Shown here: positions 14,439-54,992 of the stretch, piece by piece
How the letters are laid out: each line of letters starts with the position of its first letter
How positions within the stretch are numbered: position 1 is the first letter of the stretch
Assembly (NCBI GenBank): GCA_017547385.1
Contig: JAFYPU010000021.1
Span: 1 to 64,000 of the forward strand
Reading direction: 5' to 3'
Source: Bacteroidaceae bacterium
Lineage (GTDB): Bacteria; Bacteroidota; Bacteroidia; Bacteroidales; Bacteroidaceae
Length of the DNA: 64,000 bases
Notes under the pieces: model-generated
Database searches by the model: none
Told to the model about the DNA's origin: nothing
Seen by the model: the letters and a program-made list of their open reading frames with translations, nothing else
Program-made: the position numbers and the translations under genes

Positions 14439-14522
14439 GACAACTATCTTTAAGTTGGTTAATGCTATGTTAATTCTTGCCGAAAGCTTATATGATTTTC
14501 CGCTTTCGAGGCTCGTTTACGT

Positions 14523-22396: not shown

Positions 22397-22446
22397 GATA
22401 GTTCTGTAAGGGGTTTTTGAATGTTGAAAGAAAGGCTGAGGAAATC

Positions 22447-22785: not shown

Positions 22786-22920
22786 TAAGTTAGGTATTAA
22801 AATAACAACTCGCGCAGCAGAAGTTTTCTGCCGCAATGCCCATTTTTTAACGTCCACTTTCCGACACGCCTCAAAAAGTTTCTGTATTTTTGGCCGGGCT
22901 TCAGCTCCCTCTGACGGGCA

Positions 22921-22950
22921 CAAAGATACATATTTCTGTAATTCTGCAAA
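22921..22950 (-). promoter_or_regulatory. Promoter of DUF4248-amidase operon
   Basis: TATCTTTG (22928-22921, minus) with TTTG at 22950-22947, spacer 18 bp. It lies in the divergent gap before the S24 repressor gene, so the repressor could control it. Confidence 0.65.
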
Positions 22951-22986
22951 ATCGTCAAATCTTTTTCAACCTACACACCTCCTATC

Positions 22987-40826: not shown

Positions 40827-40874
40827 ATAATTCTCACAAGTCATCAAAATTCTCAACACTTAAATAACAATCTC

Positions 40875-41504
40875 ATGAACACACTCGAAAAGATTTTCGC
40901 AGCAAAGTTGCTGAACGTGAAAGCCATCAAGTTGCAACCCGAAGCCCCCTTCACTTGGGCCAGCGGTTGGAAGTCGCCTTTCTATTGCGACAACCGTAAG
41001 ACACTCGCCTTCCCCAATCTTCGCGGTTTCGTGAAGCTCGAACTGAGCCGCATCATTGCAGAGAAATATCCCGAGGCCGAAGCTGTGGCCGGCGTGGCCA
41101 CCGGTGCCATCGCACAGGGCGCACTCGTAGCCGAGGAGTTGGGACTTCCCTTTGCCTATGTTCGCTCCAAGGCAAAGGATCACGGAATGACCAACCTCAT
41201 TGAGGGAGATTTGCAACCCGGCATGAAAGTTGTGGTGGTGGAAGACCTGATTTCCACAGGCGGAAGCAGCCTGAAGGCCGTCGAGGCTCTGAGAGCTCAC
41301 GGATGCGAGGTCATCGGCATGGTGGCCAGCTACACTTACGGCTTCCCCGTGGCCGAAGAGGCTTTCGCCGCTTCCAAAGTTGAACTCACCACGCTGACCA
41401 ACTACGAAGCCGTGGTGGAAGTGGCACTCAGCACCGGTTACATCAAGGAAGAGCACGTGCCCATGCTGGCAGAGTGGCGCAAAGACCCTGCACACTGGGG
41501 ATAA
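40875..41504 (+). CDS. pyrE: Orotate phosphoribosyltransferase
   Basis: 209 residues. The PRPP-binding motif VVVVEDLISTGGSS, the dimer loop segment SKAKDHGMTN and FTWASGWKSPFYCDNR near the start identify OPRTase. It makes OMP from orotate and PRPP; the pathway's dihydroorotase is at 17-18 kb. A clear terminator follows 20 nt after the stop. Confidence 0.95.
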   Translation: MNTLEKIFAAKLLNVKAIKLQPEAPFTWASGWKSPFYCDNRKTLAFPNLRGFVKLELSRIIAEKYPEAEAVAGVATGAIAQGALVAEELGLPFAYVRSKAKDHGMTNLIEGDLQPGMKVVVVEDLISTGGSSLKAVEALRAHGCEVIGMVASYTYGFPVAEEAFAASKVELTTLTNYEAVVEVALSTGYIKEEHVPMLAEWRKDPAHWG

Positions 41505-41524
41505 ACGTCAGAAAGCATTTCACA

Positions 41525-41564
41525 GCCTCTCCATGGCACACCGGTGCGGTGGAGAGGCTTTTTT
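41525..41564 (+). terminator. Terminator after pyrE
   Basis: GCCTCTCC...GGAGAGGC followed by TTTTTT. Confidence 0.88.
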
Positions 41565-41611
41565 CATCATCGCACAACCCATTCACACCATCACCCGTCT
41601 CACCCACTGAC

Positions 41612-44104
41612 ATGCCTACCGCTTCAGCCAAATACGTCGACGTGCTTTTGCCGCTGGCCATGCCGGCCCCGCTCACCTATGTGCTGCCCTCATCGTTGGC
41701 CGCCGAGGTGGCCGTGGGCTGCCGTGTGGTGGTACCGTTGGGAAAGCGCAAGCAATATGCCGGTCTGGTGGTCAGACTGCACAACGAAGCACCTGCGGGA
41801 AGCTATGACGTGCGGCCCATCGTCGAGGTGGTCGACACAACACCGTTGCTCCTGCCCGAGCAATGGAAACTGTGGGAGTGGATTTCTTTATATTATATAT
41901 GTACACCCGGCGAAGTGATGAAGGCTGCCCTGCCGGCAGGCTTGAAACTCGAAAGCGAGATGTGCGTATCGCGGGCTGCCGACTTCGACCCCTCCACCCC
42001 ACTGACCAAGGCCGAGCAAAGCCTCCTCGATTTGTTGCCGCCCGATGGCGATATCGGGATGGCCGATTTGCAGCGAAAAGCCGGCATCGGCAACATTCTG
42101 CGCACGGTGCACCAATTGTTGGAAAAGGGATGCATCACCGTGAAAGAGCACATCGAACGCTCTTTCCGCCCACGCACCGAACAGCACGTGCGACTCACGG
42201 AAACTTATTTTGATGAAGAAAAGCTCAACACGCTTTTCGCCGAACTCAAACGAGCCCCCCGACAGGCAGAAATGCTGACGCTGTATCTCGACTTGGCTTC
42301 GGCAGCCACCGCCTTGCGACTCAAAAACGCCCGACTGCTGGCTGAGGTTTCGCAAAAGCAACTCACAACTGCCGGCGGCTCATCTGCCACCCTCGCAGCC
42401 TTAGTGAAACGCGGTGCACTGGAGTGTTACGCCTACGAAGTGGCTCGACTGCGCTCACGGCAAGCCGCTCCGCAGCTGCAACAGCACACACTGAACCCGG
42501 CACAGCAACAGGCACTCACAGAAATCCGCTCCGCATGGCGCGAAAAGGATGTCTGCCTGCTGCACGGTGTTACGTCGAGCGGCAAGACCGAAGTCTACAT
42601 TCACCTCATCCGGGAAGCACTGTCGCGCGGCGAGCATGTGCTTTTCCTTGTGCCGGAGATAGCCCTCACCACCCAACTCACCACCCGTTTGGAACGTGTG
42701 TTCGGCAACAAGATGGGCGTCTACCACAGCAAGTTTCCCGATGCCGAGCGCGTGGAAATCTATCGCCGACAACTCACTCCCGAGGCCTATCCGCTGATGC
42801 TCGGCGTGCGCTCGTCGCTACTGCTTCCGCACCAACACCTGGGCCTCATCATCGTGGACGAGGAGCACGAAGCCTCCTACAAGCAGCAAGAGCCGGCCCC
42901 CCGATACAATGCCCGCGATGCCGCCATGATGCTGGCACGTTTCTGCGGCGCAAAAGTGCTGCTCGGCACCGCCACCCCCGGCATCGAGACCTATCACAAT
43001 GCGCTCTGCGGCAAGTTCGGGTTGGTGCAATTGAACTCCCGACACGGCGATGTGCAGTTGCCGGAAATCTTCATCGAGGACGTGAAAGAGCTGAGGCGCA
43101 AGAAGTTAATGAAAACACCCTTTTCGCCCCGCCTCACCCGGGAGATACGCACCGCGCTGCAGGAGGGCGGACAGGTGATCCTCTTCCAGAACCGCCGCGG
43201 ATATGCTCCGATGCTCGAATGCCGCGCCTGCGGATGGACACCGCGCTGCACAAAATGCGACGTGAGCCTCACCTATCACCACCGCCTGAACCGCATGGTG
43301 TGCCACTACTGCGGAGAGGCCTACGATGTGCCGAAACAATGTCCGGCTTGCGAAGAAACCCATCTCAGGGACATCGGCTATGGCACGGAAAAGATTGAAG
43401 CCGCCGTCCAGGCCTGTTTCCCCGAAGCCCGCACCGCACGCATGGACCTCGACACCACACGTTCGCGTTCGGCCTACGAGCGCATCATCGCCGACTTCCA
43501 AGGCGGAGAGACCAACCTGCTCATCGGCACACAGATGGTCACAAAGGGGCTCGACTTCGACCGCGTGCGCGTGGTGGGAGTGCTCAATGCCGACCAGCTG
43601 CTGAGCAAGCCCGACTTCAGAGCCTCGGAGCGCGCCTTTCAGATGCTCACCCAGGTGGCAGGACGCGCCGGACGGCGCGGACGGCGCGGCACGGTGATTC
43701 TTCAGACACGCCAACCCGAAAATCCCGTCATCCGGCAAGTGGTGAGCGGCGACTATCGCAGCATGTTCGATGACCAGGTGGAAGAACGCGAGATGTTTCG
43801 CTATCCGCCCTTCTGCCGCATGATTGAAATCCATCTGCGCCACCGCGATGAAGCCGTGGTGGAACAAGCGGCACGAACCTTGGCATCATTGCTCGCCCCC
43901 CACTTCCCCAACTCCCTGCTCGGCCCCGACCGCCCGGCCGTGGGACGCGTCCAACTGCGACACCTGCGCAAAATCGTCATCAAGGTCATGCCCAACCTCC
44001 CCACCGCAGGCGTGCGCCGCACCCTGCTGGCCGCTCGTGCCGCCCTGCTGTCGGAACCAAAGATGAAGAGTCTGGACGTCTTCTTCGATGCCGACCCCGT
44101 TTAA
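41612..44104 (+). CDS. priA: Primosomal replication helicase PriA
   Basis: 830 residues with an N-terminal 3'-DNA-binding domain, Walker A GVTSSGKTEVY, Walker B IVDEEHEASYK, and the zinc site CRACGWTPRCTKC plus CHYCGEAYDVPKQCPAC. Helicase C motifs include TQMVTKGLDFDRV and QVAGRAGRRG. It restarts stalled forks. The frame is open for 46 codons upstream, through the pyrE terminator, so I place the start at ATG 41612 (MPTASAKYVDVLLP). Confidence 0.95.
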   Translation: MPTASAKYVDVLLPLAMPAPLTYVLPSSLAAEVAVGCRVVVPLGKRKQYAGLVVRLHNEAPAGSYDVRPIVEVVDTTPLLLPEQWKLWEWISLYYICTPGEVMKAALPAGLKLESEMCVSRAADFDPSTPLTKAEQSLLDLLPPDGDIGMADLQRKAGIGNILRTVHQLLEKGCITVKEHIERSFRPRTEQHVRLTETYFDEEKLNTLFAELKRAPRQAEMLTLYLDLASAATALRLKNARLLAEVSQKQLTTAGGSSATLAALVKRGALECYAYEVARLRSRQAAPQLQQHTLNPAQQQALTEIRSAWREKDVCLLHGVTSSGKTEVYIHLIREALSRGEHVLFLVPEIALTTQLTTRLERVFGNKMGVYHSKFPDAERVEIYRRQLTPEAYPLMLGVRSSLLLPHQHLGLIIVDEEHEASYKQQEPAPRYNARDAAMMLARFCGAKVLLGTATPGIETYHNALCGKFGLVQLNSRHGDVQLPEIFIEDVKELRRKKLMKTPFSPRLTREIRTALQEGGQVILFQNRRGYAPMLECRACGWTPRCTKCDVSLTYHHRLNRMVCHYCGEAYDVPKQCPACEETHLRDIGYGTEKIEAAVQACFPEARTARMDLDTTRSRSAYERIIADFQGGETNLLIGTQMVTKGLDFDRVRVVGVLNADQLLSKPDFRASERAFQMLTQVAGRAGRRGRRGTVILQTRQPENPVIRQVVSGDYRSMFDDQVEEREMFRYPPFCRMIEIHLRHRDEAVVEQAARTLASLLAPHFPNSLLGPDRPAVGRVQLRHLRKIVIKVMPNLPTAGVRRTLLAARAALLSEPKMKSLDVFFDADPV

Positions 44105-44165
44105 TCACCCTCGTTCAGCCGCTTCTTCAGGCAGTCCTCAGAAACACACTCACCGCACACAAAAC

Positions 44166-44210
44166 AAAGTGCCTCCGCTTCCAAAGTGATGCAGAGGCAC
44201 TTTATTTTTG
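44166..44210 (+). terminator. Terminator of priA
   Basis: AAAGTGCCTC...GAGGCACTTT followed by ATTTTTG. Confidence 0.9.
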
Positions 44211-44231
44211 TTTATAGTGCTCAAAAAGTAT

Positions 44232-44336
44232 ATCCCAAGGCTTGCAATATATATTTCATGCCTTGCAATATTTATCTCATGACTTGCAATATATATTGCA
44301 AGCCTTGCAACATAGTTTTCAAGCACTGTCGAAGAA
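44232..44336. repeat. 21-bp unit array H (AT-rich variant)
   Basis: Five 21-bp units at 44232, 44253, 44274, 44295 and 44316. The core is (C)ATGCCTTGCAA, CAAGGCTTGCAA or ATGACTTGCAA with linkers such as TATATATTT. It sits between the priA terminator and the glyS promoter; the 44105-44527 stretch holds no gene. Confidence 0.88.
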
Positions 44337-44466
44337 GTTTCGCAGCATTCCCGAAAAGTTGGCTGTGCCTCCCGATTTCTTTGCCAACCATCACCGTCCA
44401 CAACCGTGCGCGCAGCGATTCGGCACATGCGTTTCACACTTTTTTGCTCCGAAAGCCAAGTCTTGT

Positions 44467-44497
44467 TTTGCCTATCCCACATTTTGCCGTAACTTTG
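44467..44497 (+). promoter_or_regulatory. Promoter of glyS
   Basis: TAACTTTG (44490-44497) with TTTG at 44467-44470, spacer 19 bp, about 30 bp before ATG 44528. This decides the start. Confidence 0.8.
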
Positions 44498-44527
44498 AAG
44501 CCGCAAACAATAACACATTATAATATT

Positions 44528-46069
44528 ATGGCTCAAGAAGACGTTTTCAAAAAAATTGTTTCCCATTGCAAAGAATACGGTTTCGTATTCCCCAGTAGCG
44601 ACATCTACGACGGTCTCGGCGCAGTGTACGACTACGGACAGAATGGTGTGGAACTCAAAAACAACATCAAACAATACTGGTGGCAATCCATGGTGCTCCT
44701 CCACGAGAACATCGTGGGACTGGACAGCGCCGTGTTCATGCACCCCACCGTTTGGAAAGCCTCGGGCCACGTCGACGCATTCAACGACCCCCTCATCGAC
44801 AACCGCGACTCGAAGAAGCGTTACCGCGCCGACGTTCTCATTGAAGACCAAATAGGCAAGTACGAAGAGAAAATCGAGAAAGAAATCGCCAAAGCACGCA
44901 AGCGTTTCGGCGAAGCCTTCGACGAAGCCCAATTCCGCAGCACCAACCCCCGCGTGTTGGAGAACGAAGCCAAGAAAAGCGCACTGCACGAACGCTTCGC
45001 AAAGGCAATGGGCGAGATGAACCTCGACGAACTCAAGCAAATCATCCTGGACGAAGAAATAGCCTGCCCCATCAGCGGCACACGCAACTGGACAGACGTG
45101 CGTCAGTTCAACCTCATGTTTAAGACCGAAGTGGGTTCCACCGCCGATGGCGCCTCCACCATCTACCTGCGCCCCGAAACCGCGCAAGGCATCTTCGTGA
45201 ACTACCTCAACGTGCAGAAAACCGGCCGCATGAAGATTCCGTTCGGCATCGCCCAAATCGGAAAAGCCTTCCGCAACGAAATCGTAGCCCGACAGTTCAT
45301 CTTCCGCATGCGAGAGTTCGAGCAGATGGAAATGCAATACTTCGTGAAACCCGGCACCGAGCTTCAGTGGTTCGAACAATGGAAGCAGACACGCATGGCT
45401 TGGCACCAGGCACTCGGCTTCGGCGCAGAGAACTATCGCTTCCACGACCACGAAAAGCTGGCGCACTATGCCAACGCCGCCAGCGACGTGGAATTCCGCA
45501 TGCCCTTCGGTTTCAAAGAAGTGGAAGGCATCCACAGCCGCACAGACTTCGACCTGTCGCAACACGCCAAGTTCTCAGGACGCAAAATCGAGTATTTCGA
45601 TCCCGACATCAACGAGAGCTACACTCCCTACGTTATCGAGACAAGTATCGGAGTGGACCGCATGTTCCTCAGCGTGCTCTGCCACGCCTACCAAGAGGAG
45701 AAGCTCGAAGGCGGCGACACCCGCGTGGTGCTCAAGCTGCCCGCAGCACTCGCCCCCACCAAGCTGGCCATCATGCCGCTCGTGAAGAAAGAAGGCCTGC
45801 CCGAGAAGGCACGCGAAATCATGGACGAACTGAAATTCCACTTCAACTGCAAGTATGACGAGAAGGACTCCATCGGCAAGCGCTATCGTCGTCAGGATGC
45901 CGTCGGCACACCCTTCTGCATCACCATCGACCACGAAACACTCAACGATGGCTGCGTAACCCTCCGCGACCGCGACACCATGCAGCAGGAACGCGTTCCC
46001 GTGAGTGAACTCCGCGCTCGTCTGGAAGACAAAGTGAGCATCACCTCCCTCCTGAAGAAGCTCTGTTAA
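44528..46069 (+). CDS. glyS: Glycyl-tRNA synthetase
   Basis: A 513-residue class II synthetase of the single-chain (alpha2) type. Motif 2 region is RNEIVARQFIFRMREFEQMEMQ in two adjoining pieces, motif 3 is SIGVDRMFLSVL, and RPETAQGIFVN and the C-terminal anticodon-binding domain (VVLKLPAALAPTKLAIMPL onward) are present. It charges tRNA-Gly. The frame extends far upstream through array H and the promoter; MAQEDVFKKIV at 44528 is the real start. The FKBP-like lipoprotein gene follows 12 bp later. Confidence 0.95.
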   Translation: MAQEDVFKKIVSHCKEYGFVFPSSDIYDGLGAVYDYGQNGVELKNNIKQYWWQSMVLLHENIVGLDSAVFMHPTVWKASGHVDAFNDPLIDNRDSKKRYRADVLIEDQIGKYEEKIEKEIAKARKRFGEAFDEAQFRSTNPRVLENEAKKSALHERFAKAMGEMNLDELKQIILDEEIACPISGTRNWTDVRQFNLMFKTEVGSTADGASTIYLRPETAQGIFVNYLNVQKTGRMKIPFGIAQIGKAFRNEIVARQFIFRMREFEQMEMQYFVKPGTELQWFEQWKQTRMAWHQALGFGAENYRFHDHEKLAHYANAASDVEFRMPFGFKEVEGIHSRTDFDLSQHAKFSGRKIEYFDPDINESYTPYVIETSIGVDRMFLSVLCHAYQEEKLEGGDTRVVLKLPAALAPTKLAIMPLVKKEGLPEKAREIMDELKFHFNCKYDEKDSIGKRYRRQDAVGTPFCITIDHETLNDGCVTLRDRDTMQQERVPVSELRARLEDKVSITSLLKKLC

Positions 46070-46081
46070 TCTGAATACGGC

Positions 46082-46738
46082 ATGAAACATTTCCTCCTGC
46101 TTCTCTCCCTCCTCATGACGGGCCTCAGCCTGTTCACCGCGTGTGAAGAATATGAGGAAACAGACCCCGAATACGCCAACTGGCAGGCACGCAACGCCGC
46201 CTACTTTCAGCAGCAACTCTCCGAGGCCAAAGCCGCCATTGCCCAAGCACAAGCCACACATGGCGAAGCCTGGGAGGAGCATTGCCCGTGGCGCGTGTTC
46301 CGCAACTACTCGTCCTCGCCCAACCCCGACGTGGCGTTGAAATCCACCGACAGCATCTGCGTGAAAATCGTGGAGCGCAGCGGGAACGTGCAAGTGCCCA
46401 TCGCCACCGACTCCGTGCGAGTGAACTTCCTGGGCCGGCTCATGCCGAAACTCTCCGGCGAGGATGGCACCATCTTCTCCCACTCCGGTGTGAGCAATCG
46501 TCCCGAGGACATCTTCTCCGACGCCCTCGGCGCGCCTGCCAAGTTTGCCGTGACGGGCACCGTAGCCGGTTTCGCCACCGCGCTGCAACACATGCCGCTC
46601 GGCGACCGCTGGCTCATCATCATCCCCCAAGAGTTGGGATACAAGGCACAAGCCATCGACAAGTGCCCCGCCTATTCCACCCTCATCTATGAGGTGCAGC
46701 TCAAGAGCATACACCCTGTGGGAACGAGCGTGGAGTAA
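46082..46738 (+). CDS. FKBP-like peptidyl-prolyl isomerase lipoprotein
   Basis: 218 residues: lipoprotein signal (LFTACEEYEE, Cys about 21), a helical Ala/Gln-rich spacer (about 40-65), then an FKBP-like domain. VRVNFLGRLM, FSDALGAPAKFAVTG and VAGFATALQHMPLGDRW, then IIIPQELGYKA and STLIYEVQLKSI, match FKBP strands. It likely assists folding in the periplasm. Probably an operon with glyS. Confidence 0.85.
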   Translation: MKHFLLLLSLLMTGLSLFTACEEYEETDPEYANWQARNAAYFQQQLSEAKAAIAQAQATHGEAWEEHCPWRVFRNYSSSPNPDVALKSTDSICVKIVERSGNVQVPIATDSVRVNFLGRLMPKLSGEDGTIFSHSGVSNRPEDIFSDALGAPAKFAVTGTVAGFATALQHMPLGDRWLIIIPQELGYKAQAIDKCPAYSTLIYEVQLKSIHPVGTSVE

Positions 46739-46772
46739 GAAAAAGTAAACGCCTATACATATAATAATATAA

Positions 46773-46812
46773 AGACACCGGCAAGGCTAATCAACAGCCC
46801 TTGTCGGTGTCT
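46773..46812 (+). terminator. Terminator after the FKBP gene
   Basis: AGACACCGGCAAGGC pairs with GCCCTTGTCGGTGTCT with two imperfections. T-run absent on the plus strand. Confidence 0.55.
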
Positions 46813-46966
46813 GTGCATAAAGTCCTGCTATCGCGGAGGAGAGGCTAGCATATCCCATCTCCGACCTTAAGACCCATACATCCATCTTTAAAATCCTCAA
46901 AAGCACTCTTCCCAATCCCGGAAGAACAAAAAATCCCTTTAAGAGCGTTATATTGTCTAAAAAAAC

Positions 46967-46974
46967 TATCTTTG
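46967..46974 (+). promoter_or_regulatory. Promoter (-7 box) of the GTPase operon
   Basis: TATCTTTG on the plus strand, then a leader of about 330 nt to ATG 47306. No ideal -33 element; the upstream 46813-46966 stretch shows no gene. Confidence 0.5.
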
Positions 46975-47305
46975 CAACGTCCGCAAGCGATGCGGATCTT
47001 CAGAGAAGCGTTTTTGCTTATCCTTGAAACGAAATCGGCAAAATTTCATCAGCAAGAGGATAAAGACAATGTAACGCTCATTCTGCTTGTATGCATTAGG
47101 AATGGTTTCAGACCGTTTCTTTTTGTGCATATATGCCAGCGTGGGATGATTGTTCTTCTGTCCGCATCTTGCATAGGTGTTTGCCGATACCTGTTTCAGT
47201 GCGAACGAAACAACAAGCTCACGCTTTTTTTGTTTCTCCTCTGATCCTGGGATATCCAATCGCCAAACTGAAGTTTTTACTCATTTTCAAAAAACTTCAA
47301 AACTC
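46975..47305 (+). other. Long untranslated leader or remnant
   Basis: Frames on both strands (46972-47244 plus, 46966-47259 minus) are open here but look like chance, and the plus frame begins at the promoter itself. The stretch could be a regulatory leader of the GTPase operon or part of the island boundary. I see no strong hairpin. Confidence 0.35.
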
Positions 47306-48337
47306 ATGGGAAACACCAATTACCTAAAAGTCTTATCATTTGCCTTTTGGCTGGCATTGATGATTGGAAGCTGCTATCTTACCGTGGAAAGCCTTGATTT
47401 ATTAACCGGATGGCCTGTATTCATTTTGTGGATACTTTCATTGGCCTGTTTTACCTTGGCCTCCATCGGCACGAAACTCATTTGCGACAGCCTCAACACC
47501 GCACTCTTTATCACAGGGCGAGGAATGAAACTCACGCTCGGCATCATCTTCCTCCTTGTGTTCTGGCTTATCTTTTCCTTTCCCACCAATACGCACACAC
47601 TCTTCTATGACTCTGCCATTAAAAACATTCTGACAGAAGACATTGCTGAGACCAAAGAAGCCTTAAGCAAATTAGCAAACACAGACAGCCGCGTAGAACA
47701 ATTAGAGAACGAGAAATTAGCCAAAGCCACAGAGTTAAGTACTATTATCGAGAACTATGTAGCAGAGGTAAACAACCCACAAAACTTAGGGCATGGAAAT
47801 AAAGCCGAAAAGCACTTGGCAGAATTCAATGCCAAGCTTGTGCCTCTTGGATGCAAAATAAAGGCTGAATCCCTGAAGCCTTACCCCACAAAGAAGAGTC
47901 AATTGCGAGATTACACAGAGCGCATGACCACAAAATTAGTCAGCATAGCAGGAACTGCCATTGCCAATTATTACAATCCCAAAATTGCAGCAACAAAAGA
48001 CTCTAAGAAGACTAAACAATTCACTGACAATATCAACTTACTGAGCAGACTCGAAAAACATTTGGCAGACAATCCGGCCTGCGATGAACCGACACGTAAA
48101 ACGGAGCAATTGCTATCCAAATGCTACAATCAGATTTACACAAATACCACACCCCCCGACAGCCGTTTTTATGGCGAAACAAAGACTGAGCGCGTGCGCA
48201 GTGTTATCCAACTTGTCAAAGATTTCTTTACCGGAAACATCCCCGGCAATCGCGACCTCACTTACTTTATCATCATTGCCCTCATCATTGACATCGCCGG
48301 ATTTATCTTCTTTTTTTACGCAACCAAACAACCATAA
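47306..48337 (+). CDS. Four-TM protein of the GTPase operon
   Basis: 343 residues, no recognised family. Three TM segments lie near the N-terminus (about 7-29, 33-55, 74-92) and one at the C-terminus (about 319-340). Between them is a 220-residue soluble, mostly helical region with a heptad-like start (ALSKLANTDSRVEQLENEKL). If the N-terminus is inside, the soluble part is periplasmic. It is the first gene of a five-gene, AT-richer operon, 17 bp before the GTPase gene. I start at ATG 47306 (MGNTNYLKVL), since the upstream extension lacks any support. It could be a sensor, channel or anchor; no function is shown. Confidence 0.8.
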   Translation: MGNTNYLKVLSFAFWLALMIGSCYLTVESLDLLTGWPVFILWILSLACFTLASIGTKLICDSLNTALFITGRGMKLTLGIIFLLVFWLIFSFPTNTHTLFYDSAIKNILTEDIAETKEALSKLANTDSRVEQLENEKLAKATELSTIIENYVAEVNNPQNLGHGNKAEKHLAEFNAKLVPLGCKIKAESLKPYPTKKSQLRDYTERMTTKLVSIAGTAIANYYNPKIAATKDSKKTKQFTDNINLLSRLEKHLADNPACDEPTRKTEQLLSKCYNQIYTNTTPPDSRFYGETKTERVRSVIQLVKDFFTGNIPGNRDLTYFIIIALIIDIAGFIFFFYATKQP

Positions 48338-48354
48338 TCAAAACCGATACCACT

Positions 48355-49200
48355 ATGTCTCCTAACACAAACACACAAAACATTCAGCAACAATCACAAA
48401 TAACCATTGCTGATCAAGAAGCACCCATCGTCATCTTGTTTGGTGCTCCGGCTTCCGGAAAAACATGCATCTTAGTGCGTTTGCTTCGTTATCTCAACCA
48501 AGAAACCAACCTCCAATGGGAACCTGATGCAACATTCCGCTCTGTTACCATAGACCCTATTTACGGAACTGTATGCGAAAAGTTCAAAAGTGATGTAAAC
48601 GCCAGCACTACACCGGTCGCAACTCCACCGGATTTTTATTTGTTGGCAAAAGTTCGCGATAACTATGGAAAAACTTTATTCCAAATCCTCGAAGCTCCGG
48701 GAGAACTTTATTTCCCTACAGACGACCTCAAGAACAATGCCCAAAACTTCAACCCTCATTCATTTTCCTATCCCTATGCTCACAGCATCATCAATGCGCC
48801 CAACAGAAAGATTTGGTGCTTCATGATAGAGCCAAATTGGGAAACACCTTCCATACGTGCCGCTTACGTTGACCGTATCAAAGCGATGAAGATGCACATG
48901 TCTCCCACAGACAAGGTTATTTTAATCTGCAACAAGTGCGACGAAATGCCGGCACTCATTTTGGGAAAAGGAGTCCCCAACACTTCATTGTTTCAACAGG
49001 AAATGCAAAATCAACACCCTGGTCTTTTCACTCCATTCATCAATCAACACCCCATTACTCGCCTCTTCCGCAAATACAATTGCAGTTTTGTTGCATTCTC
49101 ATCAGGCACATTTTTTAACGATGGCACTTACACACAAAGTGCCTCAGAATATCCAAAAACATTGTTACAAACCCTTTTAAGAGCCGTACGAGGTTATTAA
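48355..49200 (+). CDS. TRAFAC-like small GTPase
   Basis: A 281-residue P-loop protein: G1 GAPASGKT (residues 30-37), a G3-like LEAPGE (about 112-117, in place of DxxG), G4 NKCD (193-196) and a G5-like AFSSG (247-251). The order and spacing fit a GTPase of the TRAFAC class, close in style to the 'double-GTPase' and conflict-system GTPases. No TM segment, so it is cytosolic. Genes start 17 bp after and 1 bp before their neighbours, so it is a core operon member. The altered G3 might mean slow or partner-dependent hydrolysis (inference). Confidence 0.85.
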   Translation: MSPNTNTQNIQQQSQITIADQEAPIVILFGAPASGKTCILVRLLRYLNQETNLQWEPDATFRSVTIDPIYGTVCEKFKSDVNASTTPVATPPDFYLLAKVRDNYGKTLFQILEAPGELYFPTDDLKNNAQNFNPHSFSYPYAHSIINAPNRKIWCFMIEPNWETPSIRAAYVDRIKAMKMHMSPTDKVILICNKCDEMPALILGKGVPNTSLFQQEMQNQHPGLFTPFINQHPITRLFRKYNCSFVAFSSGTFFNDGTYTQSASEYPKTLLQTLLRAVRGY

Positions 49201-49201
49201 C

Positions 49202-50809
49202 ATGACAAACAGCATAAACATTGTTCTCTTTGGCAATCCGCATGGGATGGGTCAGATAGGGGGTGAGAATACATTGTATTATCAAAATACCTTCTACAAG
49301 ACCTATACCAAGGAAATGCCACGTAAAAAATTCCTCATCAGTAGGCTGCCGGACAACACGGCAGTCTACACTTTGGTGGAGTACGACTTGATAGCAGGAA
49401 AGCGTCCCGGAGGTTTCTTCGGTATGGAACTGCGAGTGGAAGGGGCTTTTCACCAACAAACGGAAGAACTCATAAAATTCTTTGAAGAGGAGTATGTAAA
49501 ACATGTCGAAGGGAACATCCTTCTGAACACAAAAGACAATGGTGGCCGATACTGCATCAACAACTTCTCAGAAAGAGAAGATGTTTGGCAAGCCTTGTTG
49601 AGAGATTTTCAAGTATATGTGGATACACACTTCACGCTTGATGATTCCGTATTGCGGCGGTTACTATATGGTAACAGCACTTGGGAAAAAGTAATAGAGC
49701 CGGGCGAAATCGTTCTAAATGTTCAGGAACAAGACTCAATAAGCAACTACAAAACACGCTTCAGTGACTTAAAAGAAGAAAGCGACAAACTCATTGCTCA
49801 GAGACAATCAGAGAAAGGCATAAGAACTCTTGCTGAAATCGACAACAAATTAAGAGGTATTACAGATCATCTTAACGAACTCCAAAACGAGCTTCAAAAC
49901 AAAGATACAACTATTCCCGAAGTAAAAGTCCTCATCAGTAGTATCGAGTTTCAAGTAGGGATGATTTCTTCAGTCCTTAATACATCAAAAGGTAAGGATG
50001 AGGTAAAAGATTCCATGGTAGATGGGAAGGATGTAGTTTCAGGCCCTTCCTTAATAAAGCACTTTCCATCTCTTCCCATTCGTATCCCCTTAAATAATAT
50101 ATTGTGTGGAGTTCTCGGTTTTGCTATTGCATGGTTCCTCTTCGGGGTAATGGAACTCGGAAAAGGAGACAGCGAAAGTGGAAAATCTGGTCCTCACGAT
50201 GAAATCCCCAAGTCTTTGTGTGAATACTATGACAGCACAAATTTAGTGCAATCTTTCAAAAACTTAAAGGAAAGAATTCAATCTGCCACAAAGAACTCAG
50301 AATATGATAAAATCCGTTCTATTATTATAGAAGTTGATACAACAACTGGATGGGCTTACTCCGCATCAGTTAAAAGTGCTCTCTATGAAGCTGCAGGCCG
50401 AGCATTAATACATGAAAAAAGCACGGATGACTCTACTACAGCAGACACAGAGACTCATGCCAGTTTTGAAGGCAGTGAAGGAGATACATATACTTCACCA
50501 TACTCTTTATACAAAATCTCGAGAGTTTATTATAACAGTGAGGACAAGCGCATTTATGTTGAAATTAAAGACGATAAAGGCCAAACTACAAGTCCGATAG
50601 AAAATAAACTTTGGCTTCATGTTTACAAACCCAATAAAAATAATTACGAACCTTTTAACCATAGTAATCCCTCATCATGTGGTGCAAATCAAAATTACGG
50701 CACATACAAGTTTGAATTAGTCGATAAAACTAATGACACAATTATAGATTCTCTTACTTGTTATTACAGTAATTCATGGATAAATCTCGTTTCATATCAA
50801 TCTTATTAG
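49202..50809 (+). CDS. Single-TM adaptor 1 of the GTPase operon
   Basis: 535 residues with a modular layout. The N-terminal domain (about 1-165) has INIVLFGNPHGMG, AVYTLVEYD, GKRPGGFFGMELRVEGAF and IKFFEEEYV. A coiled coil follows (about 180-232). One TM segment is at about 298-317 (NILCGVLGFAIAWFLFGVM). The C-terminal part is about 215 residues and beta-rich towards the end. The N-terminal pattern 'YT..../.FFG.EL.../..FFE' recurs in the last gene of the operon, so the two look paralogous. With N-domain inside, the C-domain would be periplasmic. No known family recognised; resemblance to GTPase-associated (GAP1-type) N-domains is a guess. Confidence 0.75.
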   Translation: MTNSINIVLFGNPHGMGQIGGENTLYYQNTFYKTYTKEMPRKKFLISRLPDNTAVYTLVEYDLIAGKRPGGFFGMELRVEGAFHQQTEELIKFFEEEYVKHVEGNILLNTKDNGGRYCINNFSEREDVWQALLRDFQVYVDTHFTLDDSVLRRLLYGNSTWEKVIEPGEIVLNVQEQDSISNYKTRFSDLKEESDKLIAQRQSEKGIRTLAEIDNKLRGITDHLNELQNELQNKDTTIPEVKVLISSIEFQVGMISSVLNTSKGKDEVKDSMVDGKDVVSGPSLIKHFPSLPIRIPLNNILCGVLGFAIAWFLFGVMELGKGDSESGKSGPHDEIPKSLCEYYDSTNLVQSFKNLKERIQSATKNSEYDKIRSIIIEVDTTTGWAYSASVKSALYEAAGRALIHEKSTDDSTTADTETHASFEGSEGDTYTSPYSLYKISRVYYNSEDKRIYVEIKDDKGQTTSPIENKLWLHVYKPNKNNYEPFNHSNPSSCGANQNYGTYKFELVDKTNDTIIDSLTCYYSNSWINLVSYQSY

Positions 50810-51342
50810 CAATCTTCCTAACATGGGGTTGCGAAAGCAAGCCTAACAAGCCGTTTGACCCGAATGCCGTTGACAGTTTGGCGGAAGCCGAGGAGGATTA
50901 TCCGGATGAGGATATTACGCCTGATGAAGCGGACGATTGCTTCAAAATTCCCTATGTTGAAACTTCAGGAGGCTTAAAAATCATTCCTGTCAGGGTGAAC
51001 GGCATGCCGCTGGATATGATTTACGATACCGGGGCCACAGAGACCATGCTTTCGCTCACCGAGGCGCAATATCTTTACAGCAAAGGCTTGCTCACAGAGG
51101 ACGATTTCATCGAGACGCAAAGCATGCAGATGGCCGACGGAAGCATCACAGAAGGTTTGCGAATACGGATTAAGCGTTTGGAGGTGGGAACAGGTGAAAA
51201 TAGTTTCTACATTGAAAACATCACTGCCACCGTTAGCGGAACTCATAATAGCATGTTATTATTGGGACAAAACGTCATGCAATACTTCCGTTCTATATCA
51301 ATCGATACAGAAGAGGAAATCATAAAATTCTACGAAAAGTAA
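50776..51342 (+). CDS. Retropepsin-like lipoprotein
   Basis: 188 residues: lipoprotein signal (LTWGCESK, Cys19), an acidic linker (about 36-54), then a clan AA aspartic protease-like domain with MIYDTGATETMLS (Asp84), QSMQMADG and the C-terminal LLLGQNVMQYF (the ILG-like strand). Only one active-site DTGA is present, so it would work as a dimer, as retropepsins do. It is located in the periplasm, bound to a membrane. It overlaps the previous gene by 34 nt, a sign of tight coupling. It could process the periplasmic parts of its neighbours or act as an effector; both are inference. Confidence 0.85.
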   Translation: MDKSRFISILLAIFLTWGCESKPNKPFDPNAVDSLAEAEEDYPDEDITPDEADDCFKIPYVETSGGLKIIPVRVNGMPLDMIYDTGATETMLSLTEAQYLYSKGLLTEDDFIETQSMQMADGSITEGLRIRIKRLEVGTGENSFYIENITATVSGTHNSMLLLGQNVMQYFRSISIDTEEEIIKFYEK

Positions 51343-51348
51343 CCATTT

Positions 51349-52701
51349 ATGCTGTTCAACTTTTACGTCTTCACCTGTGCCGGTGAAAAGTTTGACATGT
51401 ACCCCATAGATAGGTGCAAAGAGTTCCTTTCCGTCTATGCCCAAGAGACATCGACGGGGAGTGCCATCCGCATTCATCGTCATCAAGATTTGTGCTATCA
51501 CATCTACACCCGAAAAATTCAGAAAACAGCCGATGCTCCCGTCATAGGCTTTGCCTTAGTGTTCAACAATGCTTATTGCAAGGACGACTATTCCCGGATA
51601 TTTCATCTCTTTGAGGATATATATTCGTGGATGGCAACATGGAAACGTTTTATTCAATTGGACAACAATGGTCGATTAAATTTCACATTTCAAAAGTTGT
51701 CGGAGAAGCAGACGGAAATATCCCAAATTAAACAACGTTTGCAGGACACCATCGATCAAGCCTTTTCCAAAAGTTTCGCAACACTCCCTGCACCTACATA
51801 CAACGGGAATATTTATCATCTGAATCTTTTGGAAAACACCGTTCAACCCCTCGGGACTCTGCTACAGTACTATGATAAGATCCGTATTACAGACAATCCT
51901 ATACCCACCGAGTTGGAAGTTGCCGGTGAACTCCTAAGGTTAAAGACTGAAGAGTACAAGAAACTGACTGAAGCATACAAACAACTGCAGAAAGAAAAAA
52001 CACAGCAAACTCGCGCTGCCTGGCTTCTGTTCTTGCTTATAATTTGTCTCATAGGTGGGGGCATTCTTTGGCAAAGAAACAAAAGAAACTCAGGAGAAAT
52101 CCAGAGTCTAAACAGCACTTTGGTTCAAAGAGACAGTATCATTGCAAAAAGACGAGAAACTATCGGCGTGTTGCGAGATTCCGTGCAAGGGTGTTTGCAA
52201 AGCATTGAACATTTACGCAGTTCGCTAACCTCCATGACAAACATCAATTTCCCGTTGGGTGCTCCTAGTACAGATAATACAAGTAGCGACAATAGTTACA
52301 TTATGTGGCTTTATGCCAACAATCCGGTGAAATTACAGTCTTTCAAAGTCAGACCTGCTAATTCCAATAGCTTTACGCTAAGTCTTTACAATAGTTCCGA
52401 TGAACTGATAGCCTCTTCATCGGTTTCTGCAAGCGGCGGAAGTTGGTTGACCGTGGATGTAAGCAGTGCCGGTTGGATTTTGCAGTCCGGCTACTATTAC
52501 ATCCGTATTTCTTCTCCCAACGGAAACAGTCTTTGTTGGCATAGTTCAAACGATGAAGAGTTCAGGAGATATTCCCGTGGCCCATTACGCATCACGGGCT
52601 GCTGTTCTTACGATAGTCGAAACAATAGTGATGCCAAAAGCAAACACGGATATTATCAATACTTCTACGACATTCGTTATTCCCTCTACGCCGGCAACTG
52701 A
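51349..52701 (+). CDS. Single-TM adaptor 2 of the GTPase operon
   Basis: 450 residues with the same plan as the 535-residue protein. The N-domain (about 1-140) has HIYTRKI, APVIGFALVFNNAY and IFHLFEDIY. A helical stretch (about 190-220), one TM segment (about 223-241), a coiled coil (about 246-297) and a beta-rich C-domain (about 315-450) follow. LQSFKVRPANSNSFTLSLYN and SGYYYIRISSPNGNSLCWH suggest a jelly-roll-like, possibly glycan- or ligand-binding fold. It starts 6 bp after the retropepsin gene. No family recognised. Confidence 0.75.
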   Translation: MLFNFYVFTCAGEKFDMYPIDRCKEFLSVYAQETSTGSAIRIHRHQDLCYHIYTRKIQKTADAPVIGFALVFNNAYCKDDYSRIFHLFEDIYSWMATWKRFIQLDNNGRLNFTFQKLSEKQTEISQIKQRLQDTIDQAFSKSFATLPAPTYNGNIYHLNLLENTVQPLGTLLQYYDKIRITDNPIPTELEVAGELLRLKTEEYKKLTEAYKQLQKEKTQQTRAAWLLFLLIICLIGGGILWQRNKRNSGEIQSLNSTLVQRDSIIAKRRETIGVLRDSVQGCLQSIEHLRSSLTSMTNINFPLGAPSTDNTSSDNSYIMWLYANNPVKLQSFKVRPANSNSFTLSLYNSSDELIASSSVSASGGSWLTVDVSSAGWILQSGYYYIRISSPNGNSLCWHSSNDEEFRRYSRGPLRITGCCSYDSRNNSDAKSKHGYYQYFYDIRYSLYAGN

Positions 52702-52730
52702 CTTCTGAGGCCGCTCAAGTGTTCGAAGCG

Positions 52731-52770
52731 CAAGGCGCGATGCTCTCCTTTCACGGAACATCGCGCCTTG
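52731..52770. terminator. Bidirectional terminator between convergent genes
   Basis: CAAGGCGCGATG...CATCGCGCCTTG, a perfect 12-bp stem between the GTPase operon and the GH20 gene. Confidence 0.8.
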
Positions 52771-52802
52771 TTGCATATAAGAACTTTTTCAGTGCTTTCC
52801 CA

Positions 52803-54992
52803 TCACCATGCCTGCGATCCGCAAATGCCTCGCCGCAGTTGATCGGCTTGCACATAGGGCAGGCGGCGAGCAAAGTCGGACCACGAACGGACGGACTGCG
52901 GCGTCCAAGCCACTTCGGCCAGTGCCAAAGCGCGCGGATAGGCTTGATAGTGCACGCGCTCGGCGGAGTTGATGCATTCGCTCCACAGGGTGCCGGCCAC
53001 ACCGGCCAGGTTGGTTTTCTCAAAATCATTGCCCATTCCCCAAGCAGGGTCGAGCGAATAGGTGCGCTGCAAGGGGTTGATGGGCATGCCCCAGTTCACT
53101 TCGGGCATGTCGCCGGCAGCCATCGGATAGTCGAAGTAGCAGTATTCACCGGGGCACAGCATGATGCGTGCGCCGTTGCTCTGCGCGGCGCGGATGGCCG
53201 CCTCGGTGAGTCCGTGTCGCCAGGCAAAGGTGATACACCCGGGTTGGATTTCGCGGAAGTCGGTTTCGTACCAGAACATCGGCGTTTTTCCATGCACGGT
53301 GCGCAGGGTGTCGATGACGCGGTCGAAGAGGTATTTCTGCAAATGGTGGTTGTCGTCGCGCACATCGCGGTCGATGCCGAGGCTGCGCTTCAGGGCTTTG
53401 CACTTGTCGCACTCTGTCCATGCTGCCAAGGGAGGCATACCGGCTTCGTCGCCGCCCAGATGCACGTAGGGTGAAGGGAAGATGTCAGCCAATTCGGCAA
53501 AGACTTTTCCGAGAAACTCGTAAACAAACGGTTCGCCCGGACAGAGCAATTCGTTGGACACCCCGCAAGTGGTGCGAATGGGCACGTGCTTGCCGCCACA
53601 GGTGAGTTGCGGATAGCAGTGGATGGCCGCGACCTCGTGACCGGGCAGTTCGATTTCGGGAATCAGTTGCACGTGATAGCGGGCGGCAAAGGCCACCAGC
53701 TCGCGCATCTCTGCTTGTGTGTAATAGCCGCTGATGGGCATCTGCATGTCGTCCATGCCTACACGCGCCGTGCCCTGCTCCACAAGGCGTGGGAAGGCTT
53801 TTATCTCAATGCGCCACGCCTGGTCGTCCACCAGATGCAGGTGCAGGGCGTTGTACTTGTAGCGCGCCATCTCTGCGATGAATGCTTTCAGGTCGTCCAC
53901 GGGGCGGAAGATGCGTGCGGGGTCAACCATAAGTTCGCGCAAGCCCAGGCGCGGCCCGTCGACCACAGCCATCTGCGGAATGGAGGCGCAACGCCCCACG
54001 GGCGTGGAGGCCATCACCTGGTCGAGAGTCATGAGCCCGTAGAACACTCCGGCGGCACTGCCTCCGCGAATGCAGATCTCGTCTGCGCTGACCGACAAGC
54101 GATATGCCTCGCTCTCCAGTCCGGACTGCAAGAGCAGGCGTATCCTTGCCCCCTTCGCTCCCGTCTGCACACGGGCCTCGGTGCGCTGCTCCAGGATGCG
54201 GAGGCAGTGGGTGCGTTCATTGTTCAGCTCGGGCGCAGCTTCGATGCTGATTTTCCGATCGAAGCAAAAACCCTCACCACCGGTGAGCGTGAGCAGTGCC
54301 GGTTGTGGAATGACCACCGGCATCACCACTTCGGGCAAGGTCTCCGTTCTGTCCCCGAAGAAACATTTCCAACCCTCGGCAGCGCGATAGGCACGTTCCG
54401 AGCCACGGGGCACTTCCAGACGGACGCGCCGCAGGTCTATCCCCTCAAACGCTGTCGGGGCACAAACCGGAGGAACGGCACTTCCCACACGGACACGCCG
54501 CAGAGAGGTGAGACGCGAAAAAGCAAAATCGCCGATGCGTTGCAGACTGTCTGCCGGCAGATTGATTTCCGTGAGACGCGCACATCCGGAGAATGCCGCC
54601 GTTCCCACTTCGCACACCGTGGGAGGAATGCGAAGCTCGCCTTGCAAACTGTCGCAGGCGAAGAATGCTTGCCGACCGATGCTCTTCAATTGTTCGGGTA
54701 GCACCACGGACTGCAGTCGATGCCGACTGTGCAAAGCGTTGTCGGGGATATGCGCCACACGAGCTGCCGAAAGGTCGAGCCGGGCGAGCTGCCAGCACAA
54801 GTCGCGCAACTGCCGGAAATCGGAATTGCCGCGCGTGGTCAATTGCCCCGTGAGCCGCACTTCGCGCACAGCGGCTTTGGCTTTGGGCGAACAGAGCGTG
54901 ATATGAGTGGTGTCGATGCGTTGGGCCGAGAGTGGCAGGACCACACCGCCGAGACTTATCAGAAATAGAGCGGAAAGGAAGTTTGTTTTCAT
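52803..54992 (-). CDS. LRR (BspA-type)-GH20 beta-hexosaminidase fusion
   Basis: 729 residues: signal peptide about 1-23, then BspA-type leucine-rich repeats (about 65-205: LQSVVLPEQLKSIGRQAFFA, GTAAFSGCARLTEINLP, IGDFAFSRLTSLRRVRV). A GH20b domain (about 225-340) and a GH20 catalytic domain with HLHLVDDQAWR and the Asp-Glu pair in VHLGGDEAGMP follow. GH20 enzymes release terminal GlcNAc/GalNAc; the LRR part probably adds protein or surface binding. The fusion is unusual. A second GH20 without LRR is at 24.7 kb. Start ATG 54992 gives a proper signal peptide. Confidence 0.9.
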   Translation of the reverse strand: MKTNFLSALFLISLGGVVLPLSAQRIDTTHITLCSPKAKAAVREVRLTGQLTTRGNSDFRQLRDLCWQLARLDLSAARVAHIPDNALHSRHRLQSVVLPEQLKSIGRQAFFACDSLQGELRIPPTVCEVGTAAFSGCARLTEINLPADSLQRIGDFAFSRLTSLRRVRVGSAVPPVCAPTAFEGIDLRRVRLEVPRGSERAYRAAEGWKCFFGDRTETLPEVVMPVVIPQPALLTLTGGEGFCFDRKISIEAAPELNNERTHCLRILEQRTEARVQTGAKGARIRLLLQSGLESEAYRLSVSADEICIRGGSAAGVFYGLMTLDQVMASTPVGRCASIPQMAVVDGPRLGLRELMVDPARIFRPVDDLKAFIAEMARYKYNALHLHLVDDQAWRIEIKAFPRLVEQGTARVGMDDMQMPISGYYTQAEMRELVAFAARYHVQLIPEIELPGHEVAAIHCYPQLTCGGKHVPIRTTCGVSNELLCPGEPFVYEFLGKVFAELADIFPSPYVHLGGDEAGMPPLAAWTECDKCKALKRSLGIDRDVRDDNHHLQKYLFDRVIDTLRTVHGKTPMFWYETDFREIQPGCITFAWRHGLTEAAIRAAQSNGARIMLCPGEYCYFDYPMAAGDMPEVNWGMPINPLQRTYSLDPAWGMGNDFEKTNLAGVAGTLWSECINSAERVHYQAYPRALALAEVAWTPQSVRSWSDFARRLPYVQADQLRRGICGSQAW

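What the first reader, a model, noticed from the sequence alone, without database searches (positions are those of the whole stretch)
47306..52701. Five-gene GTPase, membrane and aspartic-protease operon: candidate new system
Overlapping or nearly touching genes encode a four-TM protein, a TRAFAC-like GTPase (GAPASGKT, NKCD), a single-TM modular protein, a retropepsin-like lipoprotein (DTGA) and a second single-TM modular protein. A cytosolic GTPase plus three membrane or surface parts suggests signalling across the inner membrane, possibly conflict or surveillance. The AT-rich block sits between housekeeping genes and is closed by a terminator. No standard defence family is evident. Known work describes GTPase-centred conflict systems with associated N-domains, but I cannot assign this operon to one.
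Basis: partly seen in the sequence, partly recalled or inferred. Interest (0 to 1): 0.85.

Follow-up and report, generated by a model that had tools for sequence, protein, structure and literature searches.

The report
Mobile gut-bacterial GTPase envelope operon
Some gut bacteria carry this movable set of five neighbouring genes, which looks like an alarm built into the cell envelope: a molecular switch inside the cell, two membrane receptors whose outer parts change very fast, and a protein-cutting enzyme outside; it resembles known bacterial conflict systems but is not one of the described ones, and its function is untested.

Summary
Window 47306-52701 carries five co-directional, touching genes: A (4 TM), B (TRAFAC GTPase), C, D (aspartic-protease lipoprotein) and E. 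The set is a conserved, sporadic system of Bacteroidales. In 81 loci found through B, A precedes B in 80, A-B-N-domain protein is kept in 79, and D follows an N-domain protein in 59. C and E are paralogues: shared N-domain (hhalign E 3.6e-19), stalk, one TM, and an external part less conserved than the N-domain in 137 of 143 comparisons. D keeps DTG/DSG in 54 of 55. A close relative carries other genes at the same site; one contig carries the operon beside recombinase-like genes. B is closest to DO-GTPase2 of predicted conflict systems (profile E 2.6e-7, 192 columns), but no GAP1 or GASH was found. Four of 77 loci have a ZorA/ZorB-like pair beside the operon; D homologues also follow ZorB in two ZorAB-like loci. 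Best reading: an envelope surveillance/defence system in which variable receptors signal through a GTPase and a periplasmic protease acts. Defence is inferred, not shown. New variant of a known kind; no structure could be predicted.

The parts
47306..48337 (+). gene A: 343 aa, 4 TM; three N-terminal TM, a loop of about 230 aa predicted periplasmic, one C-terminal TM
   Evidence: hydropathy 9-27, 38-56, 67-85, 321-339; in 66 members with four segments (of 69 of 335-365 aa) mean K+R is 1.5 / 0.2 / 3.2 for N-tail, loop 1, loop 2 and 1.9 for the C-tail; no Pfam family
48355..49200 (+). gene B: 281-aa TRAFAC GTPase nearest to DO-GTPase2
   Evidence: hhalign of 58 homologues to a DO-GTPase2 profile of 10 proteins: prob 93.4, E 2.6e-7, 192 columns; a profile of ordinary GTPases of the own genome aligns over 25 P-loop columns, E 2.7e-4
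48442..48465 (+). Walker A / G1 GAPASGKT of B
   Evidence: sequence; G35 and K36 invariant in 58 homologues
48688..48705 (+). Walker B with glutamate, LEAPGE, of B
   Evidence: LE[AGST]PGE in 58 of 58 aligned homologues
48931..48942 (+). G4 NKCD of B
   Evidence: NKxD in 50, HKxD in 7, NQVD in 1 of 58 homologues
49202..50809 (+). gene C: N-domain, coiled-coil-like stalk, one TM, variable external part of about 218 aa
50776..51342 (+). gene D: clan AA (retropepsin-like) aspartic protease, probable lipoprotein
   Evidence: PF13975 46.0 bits against cut-off 28.2; lipobox-like pattern in 51 and DTG/DSG in 54 of 55 proteins (window plus 54 of 61 hits, those of 165-200 aa)
51025..51036 (+). catalytic DTGA of D
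   Evidence: sequence; DTGC 39, DTGA 12, DSGC 3, DTAA 1 of 55
51349..52701 (+). gene E: paralogue of C; N-domain, stalk, TM, variable external part of about 209 aa
52015..52071 (+). TM segment of E (residues 223-241)
   Evidence: hydropathy; positive residues before rather than after the TM in 54 against 2 of 61
52731..52770 (.). hairpin after E (15-nt arms, 93% complementary), no T-run
46813..52804 (.). replaceable block: in a close relative (G008) these 6.0 kb are replaced by 1.8 kb with two small ORFs that match none of the A-E profiles
   Evidence: L182 against window, flanks 84-88% identical; profiles

Best explanation
A horizontally moving envelope-surveillance system of Bacteroidales, most likely directed against phages or other invaders. 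Shown: a conserved five-gene cassette; a GTPase related to DO-GTPase2; two paralogous single-span proteins whose N-domains (predicted cytosolic) are conserved and whose predicted periplasmic parts diverge fastest; a protease lipoprotein that keeps its catalytic motif; sporadic presence, replacement at one site, and recombinase-like genes beside it in a few loci. Inferred: C and E are the sensors; an event at the envelope touches their external parts; the change passes through TM and stalk to the N-domains, which bind and switch B; active B acts back on the membrane through A (scaffold or permeability effector), and the periplasmic protease D is either the effector or the step that releases it by cutting C, E or A. 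Where ZorAB-like motors or a secreted nuclease are present they add power or a second effector.
For: Order conserved in 79-80 of 81 loci, median gaps 24, 5, 2 and 3 nt. C and E N-domains homologous, hhalign prob 99.2, E 3.6e-19. In 97 pairs of loci with B identity of 62% or more, medians are B 69, A 74, D 63, N-domains 47, stalks 32, external parts 25 against 21 for shuffled external parts; the external part is below the N-domain in 137 of 143 comparisons and within the shuffled range (95th percentile) in 95 of 143; e.g. L042/L045 B 87, A 86, C N-domain 81, C external 25, E external 21. B to DO-GTPase2 E 2.6e-7 over 192 columns. ZorA/ZorB-like pair beside the operon in 4 of 77 loci, upstream of A in L022, L025, L080 and downstream of E in L035; the ZorB-like protein's only PDB match is 8vvn_B, E 3.5e-5, from the type I Zorya ZorAB structure. 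D homologue directly after ZorB in L194 and L199. A secreted SNase, the only SNase found in G411, G560 and G645, lies in the loci L195, L194 and L022. Present in 5 of 37 genomes of the genus, own included, 4 strong (own included) of 295 in the order. Site replacement in G008. Operon beside two tyrosine-recombinase-like genes in L217; a relative of one lies about 300 nt upstream of A also in L072.
Against: No experiment. All loci were found through B, so co-occurrence is conditional on B. 22 of 81 loci lack D (7 of them cut by the contig end within 170 nt); L063 has B alone. ZorAB is beside the operon in only 4 of 77 loci and not in the window. PADLOC matches among 102 nearest flanking ORFs exist but have no background control; Pfam of these flanks shows mostly assorted housekeeping genes. 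Some close pairs keep the external part (L014/L015 C external 83%, L085/L090 E external 74%). DO-GTPase2 itself matches ordinary GTPases more strongly (E 6.7e-12) than B matches DO-GTPase2, and the best PDB matches of the B profile are SRP54/FtsY over the P-loop region (E 1.1e-4), so the branch assignment is moderate. No fold is known for the N-domain; a contact between N-domain and GTPase is untested.
Confidence: 0.55

Rival explanations
1. An accessory envelope-sensing or stress-response module with no role against invaders: the external parts of C and E bind cell-wall, glycan or host-derived ligands, and the GTPase with protease D adjusts envelope maintenance.
For: Big_2, Big-like and SH3_3 matches in one or two external parts each; flanks mostly housekeeping; ligand diversity could also drive variation.
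Against: Sporadic presence and site replacement, recombinase-like neighbours in L217, L072 and L038 and ZorAB-like pairs fit a conflict module better.
Confidence: 0.25
2. A device of competition between Bacteroidales (contact-dependent attack, or immunity against a neighbour's envelope attack), with C and E external parts as recognition modules.
For: Hypervariable predicted periplasmic modules, extra tandem E-like genes in L042 and L053, mobility.
Against: No toxin family passes a cut-off for the five window proteins in Pfam or NCBIfam; no secretion gene was recognised in the cassette.
Confidence: 0.1
3. A divergent member of the GAP1-type DO-GTPase systems of Kaur et al. 2020, C being an unrecognised GAP1.
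For: B relates to DO-GTPase2; eLife passages describe TM-bearing GAP1 proteins with external domains; C has HGxPxG and GRxGxYF motifs that by eye recall GAP1-N1.
Against: hhalign C N-domain to GAP1-N1 E 0.21, pooled with cousins E 0.24; 0 of 2607 ORFs match GAP1-N1 or GASH profiles at E 0.01; no Pfam GAP1 match for the window proteins, 44 C N-domains or 48 E N-domains (25 of 26 families shown).
Confidence: 0.1

Closest known systems
DO-GTPase / GAP1 GTPase-centred conflict systems (Kaur et al. 2020, PMC7159879; passages seen)
   Same: TRAFAC GTPase with Walker B glutamate; membrane-linked partners with external domains; a switch next to variable parts
   Different: no GAP1-N and no GASH found; in the window a single GTPase; instead a pair of paralogous single-span N-domain proteins, a 4-TM protein and a retropepsin-like lipoprotein
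Zorya (ZorA/ZorB; PMC11890865, passages seen)
   Same: a ZorAB-like pair sits beside the operon in 4 of 77 loci; envelope location
   Different: absent from the window operon and from 73 of 77 loci; other Zorya components not tested
TIGR02281 / PF13975 clan AA aspartic proteases
   Same: D has the PF13975 match and the DTGA motif
   Different: D scores below the TIGR02281 cut-off (37.1 against 57.95 bits) and is a probable lipoprotein of this cassette
Cousin operons in other Bacteroidota (L114, L216, found here)
   Same: 4-TM protein, DO-GTPase2-type GTPase and a long protein after it in the same order; B family to cousin GTPases hhalign E 1e-7 over 235 columns
   Different: GTPase has a long extra N-terminal part; L114 has a subtilase with a TM instead of D; homology of the 4-TM and C-position proteins not established

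Membership tests
DO-GTPase / GAP1 conflict systems | TRAFAC GTPase with conserved Walker B glutamate | tested here: met
   LE[AGST]PGE in 58 of 58; profile match to DO-GTPase2 E 2.6e-7
DO-GTPase / GAP1 conflict systems | Pfam DO-GTPase1/2 model over its cut-off | tested here: not met
   window B against PF19993: 12.4 bits, E 0.13, cut-off 27; of five B proteins three match at E up to 1, best 0.032
DO-GTPase / GAP1 conflict systems | GAP1 protein (GAP1-N1 or -N2) | tested here: not met
   0 of 2607 ORFs of the 84 loci match a GAP1-N1 profile at E 0.01; hhalign E 0.21; no Pfam GAP1 match among 92 N-domains (one of 26 families not shown)
DO-GTPase / GAP1 conflict systems | GASH protein (N1 type) | tested here: not met
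   0 of 2607 ORFs match a GASH profile at E 0.01
DO-GTPase / GAP1 conflict systems | FNIII-repeat protein (N2 type) | tested here: inconclusive
   not among the 25 of 70 Pfam families shown for 95 external parts
DO-GTPase / GAP1 conflict systems | two paralogous GTPases (38% of the published systems) | tested here: not met
   one in the window operon; a second B in 5 of 81 loci (L017, L086 in tandem; L048, L061, L079)
Zorya | ZorA and ZorB | tested here: not met
   none of the five window genes; pair in 4 of 77 loci
Zorya | ZorC/ZorD or ZorE effectors | not tested
   no profile for them was run on the loci as a set
Clan AA retropepsin-like aspartic protease | DTG catalytic motif | tested here: met
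   DTGA in the window; DTG/DSG in 54 of 55
Clan AA retropepsin-like aspartic protease | family model over cut-off | tested here: met
   PF13975 46.0 against 28.2 bits, PF13650 37.4 against 24.3; TIGR02281 not over its cut-off
Longin / SNARE-like proteins (for C and E) | longin domain at the N-terminus | tested here: inconclusive
   hhalign of the E N-domain with Ykt6 scores 12.2, 60 column shuffles mean 12.2, sd 2.5: no support; fold not predictable, structure tool switched off
PADLOC-DB 2.0.0 systems | convincing component model match | tested here: not met
   B: mad8 E 0.0011 over residues 11-50, Csx3 0.0046, PtuA 0.04; E: LmuB 0.0011; A, C, D none at E up to 1

The most novel reading that the evidence does not exclude
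A distinct kind of envelope-spanning innate immunity in Bacteroidales: paired, rapidly diversifying single-span receptors that switch a DO-GTPase2-type GTPase through a shared, possibly longin-like, cytosolic domain, and whose output is a periplasmic aspartic protease, with ZorAB-type motors and secreted nucleases as exchangeable modules of the same network.
Probability: 0.3. Interest if true: 0.87.

Novelty: new variant of a known kind. Interest (0 to 1): 0.68.

Why it matters
How a cytosolic GTPase of a predicted conflict system could read an event outside the inner membrane is open. This cassette offers a compact, testable version: two diversifying receptors, one GTPase, one polytopic membrane protein and one periplasmic protease. 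It is present in named strains (Bacteroides luti DSM 26991, Parabacteroides distasonis NM39_I3, Hallella mizrahii LKV-178-WT-2A, Xylanibacter rodentium PROD), so deletion and phage challenge are possible. That D homologues and secreted nucleases also occur in ZorAB-like loci suggests a shared set of periplasmic effectors in the phylum.

Tried and rejected
Longin/SNARE reading of C and E: suggested by the apparent order of strands and helices (by eye) and by weak C9orf72-like matches (3 of 48 E N-domains, best E 0.0099; 1 of 44 C N-domains, E 0.024); a profile comparison with Ykt6 gave a score equal to the shuffled mean. Kept only as a lead.

GAP1-N1 identity of C: motif resemblance by eye, no profile support. 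A first hint of a link between C and the C-position protein of L114 (prob 61, E 8e-5) vanished when a second cousin, L216, was added (E 0.19), so it is not claimed. Homology of A with the 4-TM protein of the cousins: not detected.

Controls for B: the ordinary-GTPase profile came from the 12 loci; one protein is in it twice, and the ORFs picked in L149 and L150 look like wrong frames. DO-GTPase2 against that profile gives E 6.7e-12 over 163 columns, stronger than B against DO-GTPase2.

Plasmids and phages: no match to a B homologue (L013) in 72,556 plasmid and 50,697 phage records at E 1e-3. IMG/VR gave one contig of 39 candidate stretches, which reads by eye like an integrative element.

tRNA-linked insertion: 8 of 60 loci scanned contain a tRNA gene and the window none; not a general rule. 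No direct repeat was found in the two end stretches searched singly.

Defence-neighbour test: of 119 nearest flanking ORFs (130 aa or more) 106 were of at most 700 aa, 4 of these were left out by hand, and 102 were scanned; 124 PADLOC models matched at least one at 1e-10, among them PDC-S01 in 3 and ZorB1 in 2 ORFs (25 models shown). Without a background set this is inconclusive.

ZorA-like protein of L022: no PDB match at 0.01; its identity rests on its pairing with the ZorB-like gene and on reading by eye.

Some notebook lines were superseded: entry 1 says D is missing in all four genus relatives (it is present in L010 and L011); entry 5 says the SNase of G646 is on another contig (not checked).
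Full report
Observation. A is 343 aa with four hydrophobic segments; B is a 281-aa P-loop protein with GAPASGKT, LEAPGE and NKCD; C (535 aa) and E (450 aa) have one TM each; D (188 aa) is a retropepsin-like protease (PF13975, 46.0 bits) with a lipobox-like start and DTGA. The block has 0.39-0.44 GC in 1-kb windows against 0.48-0.62 around it. After E there is a hairpin with 15-nt arms and no T-run. No Pfam or NCBIfam model passes its cut-off for A, B, C or E, and PADLOC gives nothing under E 0.001.

It is a conserved system. In the genus, 5 of 37 genomes including the window's own carry B (61 genomes searched; none of the 24 from other families of the order). The own genome shows it twice because the first 12 kb of contig C31 equal window 40341-52340 letter for letter, probably an assembly duplicate. 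A scan of the one-genome-per-species collection with a B alignment found 105 relatives, of which the tool kept 80 loci; 76 titles name Bacteroidales taxa or Bacteroidetes, 4 name Clostridiales, Opitutales, Lachnospiraceae and Roseburia on contigs of 4-10 kb (possible mis-binning). With profiles grown from five seeds (one for D), 84 loci were read, 81 after removing three that repeat genus loci (L042 and L043 among the 81 are identical where they overlap). A lies directly before B in 80 of 81, A-B(-B)-N-domain protein is kept in 79 of 81, and an N-domain protein is followed by D in 59 of 81; median gaps are 24, 5, 2 and 3 nt. D is missing in 22, 7 of them cut by the contig end within 170 nt; L063 has B alone. 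All loci were found through B, so B almost always comes with A and an N-domain protein; the converse was not tested. It is rare in wider draws: 4 strong matches (own included; 4 further weak ones cover only the P-loop region) of 295 in the order, and 1 strong (own; 1 weak) of 296 in the phylum.

What the parts are. B: Walker B carries glutamate in 58 of 58 aligned homologues. Profile-profile comparison with ten DO-GTPase2 proteins taken from GAP1-N1 systems (L112, L113 and eight plasmid loci) gives probability 93.4 and E 2.6e-7 over 192 columns; DO-GTPase1 gives E 1.2e-4 over 45 columns, and a profile of ordinary GTPases of the own genome E 2.7e-4 over 25 P-loop columns. Against this reading: Pfam DO-GTPase2 is below its cut-off for the window protein, a DO-GTPase2 profile finds only 11 of the loci's ORFs at E 0.01, best 3.8e-4, DO-GTPase2 itself is nearer to ordinary GTPases (E 6.7e-12), and the B profile's best PDB matches are SRP54 and FtsY around the P-loop (E 1.1e-4). 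The relation to the predicted conflict GTPases of Kaur et al. (PMC7159879; passages seen) is moderate and concerns the GTPase only.

C and E: their first 160-172 residues are homologous (A8 against A9, probability 99.2, E 3.6e-19), which makes them paralogues. The N-domain has no convincing Pfam match (92 sequences, best E 0.0065) and no PDB sequence match under E 0.1. Positive residues lie before the TM more often than after it (C 39 against 11 of 70; E 54 against 2 of 61), so the N-domain should be cytosolic and the C-terminal part periplasmic. The external part changes fastest: over 97 pairs of loci with B identity of 62% or more, median identities are B 69, A 74, D 63, N-domains 47, stalks 32, external parts 25, against 21 for shuffled external parts; the external part is below the N-domain in 137 of 143 comparisons and within the shuffled range in 95 of 143. 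C and E were paired by order, which mispairs a few loci with extra genes. Pairs that keep the external part also occur (L014/L015, 83%). Mean column identity over 95 external parts of C and E together is 7% (not directly comparable with the 30 and 35% of the separate N-domain sets); Big_2 and MORN match two members each, Big-like and SH3_3 one each, and coiled-coil families up to four. L042 and L053 carry extra tandem E-like genes.

D: DTG or DSG is kept in 54 of 55 and a lipobox-like pattern is found in 51 of 55. A: in 66 members with four clear segments (of 69) the charge pattern fits cytosolic ends and a periplasmic loop of about 230 aa.

Mobility. G008, nearest by the upstream FKBP-type gene (91% identity, next best 50%), has flanks 84-88% identical to the window but lacks the operon: window 46813-52804 corresponds to 1.8 kb with two small ORFs that match none of the A-E profiles (G008 is 81% complete and had no B match). 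Among flanks of 77 loci, families outside the operon-linked extras recur in at most 4 loci. L217, an IMG/VR contig, has the whole operon beside two tyrosine-recombinase-like genes; a 66% identical relative of one lies about 300 nt upstream of A in L072, and a relative of the other downstream in L038. A B homologue was not found in the plasmid and phage collections.

Links to other envelope systems. In 4 of 77 loci a ZorA/ZorB-like pair is next to the cassette, ending 11-40 nt upstream of A in L022, L025 and L080 (ZorA cut by the contig end in L025), and overlapping the end of E in L035. The ZorB-like protein's only PDB match at 0.01 is 8vvn_B (E 3.5e-5), which a paper's table gives as type I Zorya ZorAB of Shewanella ANA-3 (PMC11890865, passages seen). 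ZorB-like genes occur in 10 of 277 Bacteroidales genomes; of eight neighbourhoods read, none has A, B, C or E, four have a tubulin-like gene and a protein of about 1100 aa before ZorA, and two have a D homologue after ZorB (L194, E 1.5e-40; L199, E 1.2e-37). Pfam Tubulin_2 passes its cut-off only in G411 of ten genomes searched. In nine genomes searched for SNase, four have one copy each; in G411, G560 and G645 it lies in the loci L195, L194 and L022, in G646 outside L025. D thus belongs to a set of secreted hydrolases that accompany such loci (aspartic protease, trypsin-like, nuclease; a subtilase in L114), which favours an effector role.

How it most likely works. Shown: the architecture, its conservation, its mobility and its variable external parts. 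Inferred: external parts of C and E sense an event at the envelope; the N-domains relay it to B; B acts through A; D executes or releases the response in the periplasm. Arms-race-like variation, mobility and the ZorAB link make invader defence the likeliest purpose (about 0.55), an accessory envelope sensor the main rival (0.25).

What is known. I found no description of this cassette in the paper searches (open-licence PMC library only; listings). It fails the GAP1 and GASH tests and is not filed as a member of those systems; it works like them in that a TRAFAC GTPase stands between variable parts and an output. It is therefore rated a new variant of a known kind. Limits: no structure could be predicted, no experiment exists, and the defence-neighbourhood test lacks a control.

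Noticed in passing
L114 (G218) and L216 (G771): Cousin operons in other Bacteroidota: 4-TM protein, DO-GTPase2-type GTPase with a long extra N-terminal part, a long protein after it and further TM proteins, in L114 with a subtilase (PF00082, 4.5e-46); L216 is followed by a reverse-transcriptase-like ORF (14492-15493, by eye).
   Followed up: partly
L193, L195, L198, L199: A ZorAB-like system with a tubulin-like protein and a protein of about 1100 aa before ZorA, followed by secreted proteins that are trypsin-like (L193, L195), D-like (L199) or SNase (L195); possibly a separate undescribed system.
   Followed up: partly
L199:9140-9886: One secreted protein joins an N-terminal part that looks like a degenerate SNase (by eye; PF00565 found nothing in G529) to a D-type aspartic protease.
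   Followed up: no
L139 (Aliivibrio salmonicida plasmid pVSAL840): A GAP1-N1 DO-GTPase system with an IS30 transposase gene between its parts lies beside annotated RADAR genes rdrA/rdrB.
   Followed up: no
window 51349-52698, residues 325-393 of E: Weak match of E's external part to the T9SS sorting domain (TIGR04183, E 0.0051, 16.8 bits against cut-off 23); probably a shared beta-sandwich pattern.
   Followed up: no
window 221-3262: Replication-initiation-like ORF on the minus strand (221-1138) and a SocA/Panacea-like pair at 2222-3262, by eye; possible mobile-element remnants.
   Followed up: no
window 21935-23658: Amidase-, HU- and S24/CI-repressor-like ORFs side by side, by eye a phage-remnant-like cluster.
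   Followed up: no
L182:4275-6067: A close relative carries two small ORFs (a lipoprotein-like one and a TM protein) at the site of the operon; the site may be a hot spot for exchange.
   Followed up: partly
G000 contig C31: Its first 12 kb are 100% identical to window 40341-52340; it starts inside gene E. The rest of the contig was not compared.
   Followed up: partly
L080:8990-9703 (-): TIR-domain-like ORF close to an operon with ZorAB, by eye.
   Followed up: no
downstream of E in L017, L031, L039, L040, L046, L060: A recurrent secreted protein family next to the operon in 6 of 77 loci, and a secreted coiled-coil-like protein between C and D in 7; possible extra parts of the system.
   Followed up: no
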